64,000 nt of DNA, taken from Nitrosophilus kaiyonis (GTDB lineage Bacteria > Campylobacterota > Campylobacteria > Campylobacterales > Nitratiruptoraceae). Below the pieces are notes generated by a model. That model was not told the origin of the DNA and did not search any database. It saw only the letters and a program-made list of their open reading frames with translations. Shown here in pieces: positions 13,036-58,149 of the stretch (position 1 is the first letter of the stretch; every line of letters begins with the position of its first letter). The DNA lies in contig NZ_AP025696.1 of NCBI RefSeq assembly GCF_027943725.1, forward strand, positions 124,001-188,000. The letters run 5' to 3'. A program made the position numbers and the translations under genes.

Positions 13036-13275
13036 TAATAGTCATTGGTAATTGGTAATTGGGAATTAGTGCTAAGTATTGAGTGCTTATTGCTGAGTTT
13101 TTAACACTATCACTAAATCCTTCTATCTTAACTCTTTTCCACTATTCCGCAATACCCCTACTCCACTATCCTACTTCACTGCTTCCCTACTTCACTCCTT
13201 ATCACCTTACCACCTATTCCACTATCCCACTCCACAACTTCTCACCTTCAACTCTTCATTTACTTTATTCATTTT
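13036..13275. repeat. Heptamer-type intergenic repeat block
   Basis: Starts with tandem variants of ATTGGTA / ATTGGGA / ATTAGTG, then runs into a long pyrimidine-rich stretch of CACTATC- and CTACTTC-type units. The 17 nt at 13057-13073 recur exactly at 58043-58059. No gene is supported; an open frame here is a by-product of the low-complexity sequence. It belongs to the same family as the blocks at 24.3, 27.5 and 57.8-58.1 kb. Confidence 0.75.
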
Positions 13276-24310: not shown

Positions 24311-24404
24311 TAATTAGACATTGGACATTGGTAATTGGTGTATTGGTAAATTGGATATAACTTTTAACCAATAACTAATAACCAATATACCAATTACTAA
24401 TATA
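24311..24404. repeat. Heptamer-type repeat block with inverted half
   Basis: ATTAGAC ATTGGAC ATTGGTA ATTGGTG units are followed by their near-complement (TAACCAATA, ACCAATA units), so the block can fold on itself. Positions 24313-24336 are identical to 27525-27548, and the 33 nt at 24368-24400 are identical to 58117-58149. It fills the gap between pyrC and the phosphomutase stop codon. Confidence 0.85.
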
Positions 24405-25772
24405 CTAATAACCAATTTTATCCAAAATTTCTAAAATCTTTTTCTGATAAAACTCAGCTTTTTCTTTATCTTTGGCTTCAAATCTTGTAACCAAAACAGG
24501 GGTTGTATTTGAAGCTCTAACTAAAGCCCACCCATCATCAAAAATAACTCTAACACCATCTATATCTATTATATCTTTAATTTTTGGAAAATCATTTGGA
24601 GGATTTTTTAACTCCTCTTTTAATTTTTTTATAATTTCAAATTTTTTTTCATCAGTAGTATTTATCTTAATTTCTGGAGTACTATAAACTTTAGGAAGAC
24701 TATCTATCTCTTTATCTAAATCAACTCCATTTTTAATAAGTTCTATTACTCTTAATGTTGCATATATAGCATCATCATAGCCAAAATATCTATCTGCAAA
24801 AAAGATATGTCCGCTAACTTCAGCTGCTAAATCTGCACCAACCTCTTTCATCTTAACTTTTAAATTACTATGGCCGGTTTTATACATTATAGCTTTTCCA
24901 ATTTTATTTATCTCATCATACATAACTTGCGAGCATTTAACTTCTCCAACAACTACAGGATTTTTCATAGATTTTGCAAAAATTATTGCAAGGATATCAC
25001 CTTTAATATTATATTTTTTTGTTAAAACTGCTATTCTATCTGCATCTCCATCATAAGCAAATCCTATATCAGCTTCTTTTAATGCCTCTTTTATATCTTT
25101 TAAATTTTTCTCTACAGATGGATCTGGATGGTGATTTGGAAAAGTTCCATCAGGGTTACAATATAATCCTTTATAATCAAATCCTAACTCTTTAAAAATT
25201 GGCTCAACAACTATTCCAGCTACACCATTTCCACAATCTGCAACTATTTTCTTATCAAACCCCTTTAAATGAGAAAAATTTTCAACCATATAAGAGATAT
25301 ATTTTTCTTTTGCATCAATATTAAAATAGTTTTCATTATCTTTTATATCTAAATTAGAACTTATTACTTTTTCTCCCAATTGATATATATCTTTTCCAAA
25401 AAAAGGTTTTTTATCTATTGTTATTTTAAATCCATTATACTCTGGAGGATTGTGTGAGCCTGTTATCATTATTGAAGCATTTGGAGTTATCTTTTTGTCT
25501 TGAATATTAAACTCACTGTAATTACTAAAATAGTTTACCGGAGTCGGGACCATACCCATATTTAAAACTTTAACTTCAGCAGCATTAAATCCAGAAGTAA
25601 GCCACTTAAAAAGTATAGGAGAGTGAACTCTTGCATCATATCCAATAGCTACATAATCTCCATATTTTTTTATAATCTCTCCTAAATAAAACCCTATTTT
25701 TTTAACCACATTTTCACTTAACTCTTTTTCAAAAATACCTCTTATATCATACTCTCTAAAAATAGATAACAT
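24405..25772 (-). CDS. Phosphomannomutase/phosphoglucomutase
   Basis: 455 aa, four-domain alpha-phosphohexomutase of the AlgC/ManB type. It swaps phosphate between C6 and C1 of mannose or glucose, feeding LPS and other glycans. The phosphoserine loop is TGSHNPPEYNG (Ser near 106), the metal loop DGDADR (near 241), the sugar-specificity loop EVSGH, and the phosphate-binding loop RASNTTP. AAGG precedes the ATG. The end of the gene touches the repeat block. Confidence 0.92.
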   Translation of the reverse strand: MLSIFREYDIRGIFEKELSENVVKKIGFYLGEIIKKYGDYVAIGYDARVHSPILFKWLTSGFNAAEVKVLNMGMVPTPVNYFSNYSEFNIQDKKITPNASIMITGSHNPPEYNGFKITIDKKPFFGKDIYQLGEKVISSNLDIKDNENYFNIDAKEKYISYMVENFSHLKGFDKKIVADCGNGVAGIVVEPIFKELGFDYKGLYCNPDGTFPNHHPDPSVEKNLKDIKEALKEADIGFAYDGDADRIAVLTKKYNIKGDILAIIFAKSMKNPVVVGEVKCSQVMYDEINKIGKAIMYKTGHSNLKVKMKEVGADLAAEVSGHIFFADRYFGYDDAIYATLRVIELIKNGVDLDKEIDSLPKVYSTPEIKINTTDEKKFEIIKKLKEELKNPPNDFPKIKDIIDIDGVRVIFDDGWALVRASNTTPVLVTRFEAKDKEKAEFYQKKILEILDKIGY

Positions 25773-27168: not shown

Positions 27169-27700
<532 letters not shown>

Positions 27701-57782: not shown

Positions 57783-57842
57783 TTATATTAGACATTAGAC
57801 ATTTGACATTGGACATTAGACATTAGTAATTAGGAATTGAAA
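57783..57842. repeat. Heptamer repeat array (ATTAGAC-type)
   Basis: At least seven tandem 7-nt units: ATTAGAC, ATTAGAC, ATTTGAC, ATTGGAC, ATTAGAC, ATTAGTA, ATTAGGA. This is the clearest example of the repeat family seen at 13.0, 24.3 and 27.5 kb. Confidence 0.88.
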
Positions 57843-57847
57843 CCTCT

Positions 57848-58025
57848 AAAAAATTACAAATTGAACGAAGGCTTTGAAATTTTAGCTTAAAAATTTTATG
57901 TTGGCCTTTAGGCCAAAAAAGTGCACTCACCCGTAAGGGCGCTTGCGTTTGCACTTTTTAATAAAATTTTTAAGCGTTAGTTAACTAAAAATTTCAACTT
58001 GCCTGAGTAAAATTTGGTAATTTTT
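57848..58025. repeat. 178-bp hairpin-rich intergenic element
   Basis: Long imperfect inverted repeat. Outer arms AAAAAATTACAAATT and AAATTTGGTAATTTTT, middle arms GAAATTTTAGCTTAAAAATTTTAT against ATAAAATTTTTAAGCG...AAATTTC, and inner hairpins TTGGCCTTTAGGCCAA, CCCGTAAGGG and AAAAGTGCA/TGCACTTTT. No frame of note. It is embedded between two heptamer repeat blocks. It could be a MITE-like element, a structured RNA, or a double terminator. Confidence 0.75.
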
Positions 58026-58034
58026 CAGAACATT

Positions 58035-58149
58035 CAATTAGGAATTGGGAATTAGTGCTTAGTTTTTAACTATCACTATCCACTATCACTAATTCCTTTA
58101 ACCTTCTTCCTTAATTCCAATAACTAATAACCAATATACCAATTACTAA
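58035..58149. repeat. Heptamer-type repeat block at aroQ 3' end
   Basis: AATTAGGAATTGGGAATTAG units, a CACTATC stretch, then TAACCAATA-type units. The 33 nt at 58117-58149 match 24368-24400 exactly and 58043-58059 match 13057-13073 exactly. It ends two bases before the aroQ stop, just as the copy at 24.4 kb ends next to the phosphomutase stop. Confidence 0.85.

What the first reader, a model, noticed from the sequence alone, without database searches (positions are those of the whole stretch)
57848..58025. 178-bp multi-hairpin element inside a repeat block
Nested inverted repeats with three inner hairpins and locally higher GC lie between pepP and aroQ, framed by heptamer repeats. It could be a MITE-like mobile unit, a structured RNA, or a RIP-type repeat.
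Basis: seen in the sequence. Interest (0 to 1): 0.5.

Follow-up and report, generated by a model that had tools for sequence, protein, structure and literature searches.

The report
Mobile hairpin element with conserved fold
A 197-base piece of mobile DNA with no gene of its own has jumped into several places in this bacterium, and its relatives in an order of bacteria keep much the same intricate fold even where their sequences have changed, which suggests that the fold itself does something.

Summary
The element runs from 57839 to 58035 (197 bp) between direct AATT copies and folds far better than shuffles (z -6.9 and -7.45). It is one of 7 clear copies in the genome plus a weak one; all 7 sites are empty in the sister genomes read (20 stretches). 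Its ends resemble those of an IS5-family insertion sequence found in other Campylobacterota and, decayed, in a sister species; no such transposase was found in this genome. It is a MITE. The unusual part is the fold. A covariance model finds it in 37 of 199 genomes of the order, 13 of 70 genera. 39 of 60 pairs show double changes that keep pairing. A double tandem-GA internal loop is nearly invariant while its two middle pairs covary. G-T exceeds A-C 97 to 51, pointing to one selected strand. The core also sits inside other terminal repeats with other target duplications. No Rfam family reaches threshold; ten literature searches listed no description. Transcription and function are untested. 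My reading: a MITE family carrying a selected structured nucleic acid, more likely RNA than single-stranded DNA.

The parts
57839..58035 (+). whole element; the orientation called + is that in which G-T wobbles are favoured
   Evidence: ends of the group compared; copies
57835..57838 (.). left AATT target copy
   Evidence: L001
58036..58039 (.). right AATT target copy
   Evidence: L001
57839..57857 (+). left end, IS5-like: GAAACC-TCTAAAAAATTAC
   Evidence: compared with IS ends
58017..58035 (-). right end, inverted: GAATGT-TCTGAAAAATTAC
57850..57862 (+). P1, 5' arm; pairs with 58011-58024
   Evidence: pair table
57863..57868 (+). internal loop, 5' side: GA-AC-GA
58005..58010 (+). internal loop, 3' side: GA-GT-AA here (the family has GA at the end; this copy departs at 58009)
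57869..57883 (+). P2, 5' arm; pairs with 57988-58004
57885..57899 (+). P3, 5' arm; pairs with 57961-57975
57902..57915 (+). side hairpin hp1
57916..57959 (+). P4 hairpin: A-tract, stem, branched tip, T-tract; terminator-like on both strands
   Evidence: the consensus scan did not list it
57930..57947 (+). branched tip: CCC/GGG hairpin followed by CGC/GCG hairpin (family reading; the energy fold of this copy pairs it otherwise)
   Evidence: by eye; for the other fold
57978..57987 (+). side hairpin hp3
57787..57826 (+). heptamer array (ATTAGAC, 5.7 copies) beside the element, not part of it

Best explanation
It is a MITE: a small transposon without a gene, moved in trans by an IS5-family transposase that recognises its GA(A/G)ACC-TCTGAAAAATTAC ends and duplicates a 4-bp target, usually AATT, which is plentiful in the heptamer arrays where it often lies. 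Shown from sequence: dispersed copies, empty sites, inverted ends, target duplications, and an IS with similar ends in relatives. Inferred: that this IS moved it. Unlike an ordinary MITE, its interior is a fold kept by selection, on one strand, across many genera, including a double tandem-GA internal loop and an A-tract/stem/T-tract hairpin. The likeliest working mode is a transcribed structured RNA whose compact fold matters to the element or to the RNA it sits in; the P4 hairpin would stop or pause transcription coming from either side. That it is RNA rather than single-stranded DNA, and that it terminates transcription, are inference.
For: 7 copies plus 1 weak; 7 of 7 sites empty in 20 of 20 sister stretches. 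Exact 4-bp duplications at 12 of 22 copies with recognised ends (33 loci tried), position control 0.018, swap control 0.24. IS5-family transposase (NF033581, E 7.8e-73) between 18-bp inverted ends ATTGAACCCTCTGAAAAA in G088; ends of the same kind, next to AATT, around a decayed copy in same-genus G003. Fold: 39 of 60 pairs with double changes; some pairs take all four Watson-Crick forms; eight GA positions average 0.96 conservation against 0.76 for the paired positions compared, all eight kept in 40 of 56 copies, both middle pairs Watson-Crick in 48 of 56 in five combinations or more. G-T over A-C 97 to 51, p 2e-4, and the + strand consensus more stable in 5 of 5 groups. P4 A/T tract pairs are A-T in 54-56 of 56 copies.
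Against: No transposase of this kind in the own genome, and PF01609 is absent too from other carriers searched (G200, G110, G017, G059, G116, G053). AATT preference alone gives 24% exact flanks in the swap control; 2 of the 12 duplications are at sites shared by two species. The wobble bias is significant on its own only in the first group (p 0.0004; the others 0.38, 0.45, 0.38, 1.0) and events within clusters may be dependent. The window's own copy departs at one GA position, and 16 of 56 copies depart at one or more. One shared site has lost part of its stems (G008, fold -34.6 against -49.0). No preference for gene ends, no terminator-like site listed by the scan, promoter scan at chance level.
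Confidence: 0.6

Rival explanations
1. The fold works as single-stranded DNA: the + strand folds during replication or transposition and a transposase, recombinase or other protein reads it, somewhat as integron attC sites are read. No RNA is needed.
For: The strand bias fits one DNA strand as well as RNA. In some groups many tip loops are C-GAA-G, which I recall as unusually stable in DNA. Outer stems vary in sequence but stay paired in Nitratiruptor-type copies.
Against: Direct target duplications and IS-like ends fit a double-strand DDE transposon; no Y1 or integrase search was made.
Confidence: 0.2
2. An ordinary MITE without selection on the fold: its stems stay perfect because template switching at inverted repeats during replication corrects one arm from the other.
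For: Such correction is known for imperfect palindromes (recalled) and would yield double changes; MITEs are described as highly base-paired anyway (PMC3049150, passages).
Against: It cannot keep mismatched GA positions on both arms while the pairs between them covary, and it predicts equal G-T and A-C (97 to 51 observed).
Confidence: 0.12
3. A transcription-terminator cassette: the selected part is the P4 hairpin, which ends transcription from both sides and keeps neighbours or the element's own ends insulated.
For: A5 and T5 tracts around the core are found by pattern in 56 of 60 copies and P4 tract pairs are nearly invariant while neighbouring A-T pairs vary; hairpin energies without the tracts are about -3 to -22 (+) and -2 to -21 (-) over 33 copies (in some the script's best segment reached beyond P4).
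Against: 9 of 53 copies lie between convergent genes against 32 between tandem genes, with no enrichment at gene ends (partly counted by hand); the consensus scan listed none (it allows loops of 3-8 only). It does not explain P1-P3 and the GA motif.
Confidence: 0.2
4. A locus-specific regulatory RNA of pepP or aroQ.
For: Strong fold in the gap between the two genes.
Against: Seven copies elsewhere, absent at this place in the three relatives read, both orientations to the neighbouring genes.
Confidence: 0.03

Closest known systems
Bacterial MITEs such as RUP, BOX and SPRITE of pneumococcus (PMC3049150, passages) and those of the review PMC10969869 (passages)
   Same: Small, gene-free, AT-rich, inverted ends, target duplications, strongly base-paired, supposed to be moved by an IS with similar ends; SPRITE is terminator-like
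   Different: Here the interior fold, not only the ends, is shared by several genera and sits inside different ends; no enrichment at convergent gene ends as told for SPRITE
Correia repeat enclosed elements of Neisseria (PMC2649163, start of abstract in listing)
   Same: Inverted repeats with a conserved core, intergenic, can act on neighbouring genes
   Different: No sequence kinship tested; here the core shows covariation and a GA motif
IS5-family insertion sequences (NCBIfam NF033581, transpos_IS5_4)
   Same: Ends GAACCC-TCTGAAAA and AATT next to the ends
   Different: The element has no transposase gene and a different interior
Integron attC sites (recalled)
   Same: Structure kept while sequence varies, one strand matters
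   Different: Direct target duplications and IS-like ends here; no attC core boxes seen by eye
Intergenic heptamer arrays, for example TAACTGA repeats of Beggiatoaceae (PMC4679880, passages)
   Same: Short tandem heptamers in intergenic DNA, as beside this element
   Different: Another heptamer and another group of bacteria; only a neighbour of the element

Membership tests
MITE | terminal inverted repeats | tested here: met
   GA(A/G)ACC-TCTGAAAAATTAC against GA(A)TG(C/T)-TCTGAAAAATTAC inverted; recognised in 22 of 33 loci
MITE | target site duplication | tested here: met
   12 of 22 exact 4-bp, swap control 0.24; in this copy AATT on both sides
MITE | several dispersed copies, present/absent between relatives | tested here: met
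MITE | no gene of its own, short, AT-rich | tested here: met
   197 bp, no ORF of 60 aa or more overlapping it, G+C 0.25-0.45 in 60-base windows
MITE of the IS5_4 transposase | autonomous partner with the same ends | tested here: inconclusive
   present in G088 and G152, decayed in G003, absent from the own genome; movement not shown
known structured RNA family (Rfam 15) | score above a family's gathering threshold | tested here: not met
   window: three tRNAs only; 11 loci: best LPR69 at 23.2 bits against 40 needed, - strand of L111
Functional structured RNA | covariation that keeps pairing | tested here: met
   39 of 60 pairs; no tree-aware test was run
Functional structured RNA | transcript | not testable with these tools
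   no expression data; promoter scan at chance level
Intrinsic terminator | hairpin followed by T-tract | tested here: inconclusive
   tracts and stem present, but the scan with loops of 3-8 listed none
REP/RIP-type palindromic repeat | mobilised by a Y1 transposase | not tested
   no Y1 search was made

The most novel reading that the evidence does not exclude
A structured nucleic acid, probably an RNA with a double tandem-GA motif, is itself the lasting unit: it has been carried through this order by exchanging its transposon ends (IS5-like with 4-bp duplications, CTGAccTTACGCA ends with 7-8 bp duplications, ACTGACTAAAT-type ends), and its fold is selected because a host factor or the mobilising machinery reads it.
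Probability: 0.3. Interest if true: 0.8.

Novelty: new variant of a known kind. Interest (0 to 1): 0.55.

Why it matters
MITEs are usually described by their ends. Here the ends differ between lineages while the interior fold is kept, in the best-sampled groups down to a noncanonical motif. If true, it makes directly testable whether a gene-free transposon can carry a selected RNA or DNA structure, and the covariance model can be run on transcriptomes of these bacteria.

Tried and rejected
Solo ends in the own genome: 14 exact 12-mers TCTGAAAAATTA, 11 in the copies and 3 elsewhere; the first script for their context failed because it read one strand only; a second shows open frames of 120, 363 and 378 codons over the three sites, so they look like chance hits in coding DNA. 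Transposase for the CTGAccTTACGCA group: G059 has 176 end-pattern matches against 1 for the control but no PF01609 and no PF12762; IS1595-type remnants in G003 and G006 have other ends (by eye); in two G059 stretches with an unpaired end no transposase was seen by eye. Outer stems made from the target in Nitratiruptor-type copies: set aside, since most look like drifted, compensated versions of one consensus (by eye); the quite different perfect outer stems of G057, G142 and G202 copies remain unexplained. A shared function of neighbouring genes: genes at five loci were read by eye and look like housekeeping genes or unknown ones. Viral spread: no viral contig holds the 24-base core. Rows dropped: three copies with large inserts (L006, L007, L123) from the 56-copy alignment; 11 of 33 loci without recognised ends from the duplication count, of which L093, L099, L110 and L283 show AATT on both sides by eye. 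In one search the G053/G116 group shared only 18 pairs between the folds of its two strands and adds little.

Full report
What was checked. The window is 124001-188000 of a 1,769,550-base single-contig genome. The stretch 57848-58025 folds at -58.6 kcal/mol (+) and -56.2 (-), with 0 of 200 shuffles as good on either strand.

Copies and boundaries. A 391-base query found 7 strong copies in the own genome, one of them in two pieces, among 89 matches, most of which cover only the heptamer flanks. A covariance model adds an eighth, weak place (351079-351217, E 1.7e-7). Comparing copies sets the element at 57839-58035 with AATT on both sides. Of 33 loci of this group the script recognised both ends in 22; 12 of 22 have an exact 4-base duplication and 18 of 22 at least 3 of 4. 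The position control is 0.018 on average (highest 0.136); the swap control is 0.24, because AATT is a preferred target. Two of the 12 (L105, L107) lie at sites shared with L096 and L098 and are not independent. In the own genome the exact ones are L001 and L002; L003 and L004 match 3 of 4, L005 2 of 4, L007 1 of 4, and L006 was not recognised. Duplications other than AATT (TATT, ATTT, AATC) argue for more than a shared target.

Mobility. Flank queries located the 7 sites in relatives. In 20 of 20 stretches read (1 to 4 relatives per site) the element is missing while neighbouring gene sequence is in place. Several empty sites hold other fast-changing repeats, so the exact letters before insertion cannot be read.

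Transposase. PF01609 was found in 3 of 10 genomes searched (G002, G003, G088), not in the own genome, and in 9 of 14 control genomes. A G088 locus holds a 330-aa IS5-family transposase (NF033581, E 7.8e-73, above cut-off) between 18-bp inverted ends ATTGAACCCTCTGAAAAA, close to the element's GA(A/G)ACC-TCTGAAAAATTAC. Of 199 genomes of the order 7 have a relative of this protein at E 1e-20 or better; in same-genus G003 it is in pieces, some with stops, with ends GAATCCTCTGAAAAA and GAGTCCTCTAAAAAATTA, each next to AATT. G152 has similar ends on both sides of its copy; in G162 and in a fragment in G098 one such end was seen. That the IS5 enzyme moved the element is inference from the ends.

Distribution. 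With the model built from 28 copies, own genome included in the counts: 13 of 22 genomes of the family at E 0.01 or better; 37 of 199 of the order, 13 of 70 genera, at 0.001; 10 of 298 of a phylum sample at 1e-6, all 10 in this order. The last two used stricter filters. A 24-base pattern of the core over the collection of 84,980 species hit 38 stretches, all with titles of Campylobacterota (Campylobacterales, Nautiliales, Nautiliaceae, Hydrogenimonas, Nitratiruptor, Epsilonproteobacteria, Campylobacterota). It finds exact matches of one tip form only. By equal contig lengths G021 is a record titled Nitratiruptor and G190 one titled Hydrogenimonas, so the own family is probably Nitratiruptoraceae (inference).

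Different ends, related core. The own genus, G200, G190 and G098 have TCTGAAAA-type ends. In G059 the core lies between CTGACCTTACGCAAAATTTG ends with 7-8 bp duplications: 12 of 23 end pairs exact, swap control 0.002; not all 23 carry the core, two loci give two pairs each, and one of these pairs is nested in another. G088 has CTGATGTTACGCA ends; G053, G116, G006, G009 and G033 have ACTGACTAAAT-type ends in many copies. Kinship of the cores rests on model scores (about E 1e-9 to 1e-19 for these groups) and, for some of them, on short BLAST matches of about 80-90% around the P4 tip. The GA motif was counted in the first group only.

The fold. RNAalifold on a sequence-only MAFFT alignment of 28 copies gives 60 pairs, 39 with at least one double change that keeps pairing. 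In 56 copies some pairs take all four Watson-Crick forms. Using only pairs predicted on both strands, five groups give G-T against A-C counts per cluster of 61:27, 13:8, 5:2, 4:1 and 14:13; together 97:51, p 2e-4; only the first group is significant alone. The + strand consensus is the more stable in all five. Strand-neutral processes predict equality. The internal loop between P1 and P2 reads GA-NN-GA against GA-NN-GA: its eight G and A positions average 0.96 conservation, cluster-weighted, against 0.76 for the P1-P3 paired positions compared; 40 of 56 copies keep all eight, and both middle pairs are Watson-Crick in 48 of 56 (AC/GT 29, GC/GC 16, AT/AT 2, TC/GA 1; wobble or mismatch 8). The window's copy departs at 58009. 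I read the loop as tandem sheared G-A pairs around two base pairs (inference). The five base pairs at the foot of P4 are A-T in 54 to 56 of 56 copies, and an A5...T5 pattern is found in 56 of 60 copies of the wider set.

Age and constraint. At sites occupied in two genomes the element is more alike than its aligned flanks in 6 of 7 comparisons (98.5, 98.5 and 99.5% against 92-97% for G003/G002, the first two sharing one G003 site; 88 against 78-80; 95 against 90-93; 85 against 72-78), the last perhaps two separate insertions in one gap. The seventh goes the other way, 78 against 90-97; there 7 pairs changed on both sides and still pair, 5 changed on one side, 6 broke. In the 95% case one copy has lost bases in its stems. 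Conversion between copies could also make copies alike.

Placement. Of 54 loci with flanks, 44 were classed by script (18 tandem opposite, 10 tandem same, 9 divergent, 7 convergent). Adding by hand 9 that have a short spurious ORF over the element gives 21, 11, 12 and 9 of 53; one locus lacks a gene on one side. The loci are those the searches happened to return, and some are orthologous. I see no preferred gene end.

Literature. Ten searches listed no paper on such an element in Campylobacterota. Passages were read in PMC4679880, PMC2267715, PMC10969869 and PMC3049150; other papers were seen in listings only. The library lacks most subscription journals, so this is no proof of absence.

Verdict. 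The MITE reading is right. The structured-RNA reading is right as to structure and open as to RNA. The claim beyond an ordinary MITE rests on the GA motif, the covariation and the one-strand bias, all from sequence alone.

Noticed in passing
57787-57826; also 13044-13067, 24357-24417, 27533-27579: Period-7 arrays (ATTAGAC, ATTGGTA, TAACCAA, AATTAGG) in the window; dozens of related stretches in the genome match the flanks of this element without the element.
   Followed up: partly
L381, L374, L387 (G059): 29-bp near-perfect palindromes made of two CTGAxxTTACGC ends alone, like minimal elements of the same end type.
   Followed up: no
G059, whole genome: 176 matches of the CTGAxxTTACGCAA end pattern against 1 for the reversed control, yet no PF01609 or PF12762 transposase.
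   Followed up: partly
L006, L007 (own genome): Two copies carry an extra GC-rich hairpin in place of part of P2.
   Followed up: no
L291, L292, L293 (G057); L294 (G142), L295 (G202): Copies whose long, nearly perfect outer stems differ wholly in sequence from copy to copy; how these ends arise is unexplained.
   Followed up: no
L203 (G016) and L220 (G003): Elements in the same intergenic gap, between the same two genes, in two genera; old insertion or two separate ones.
   Followed up: partly
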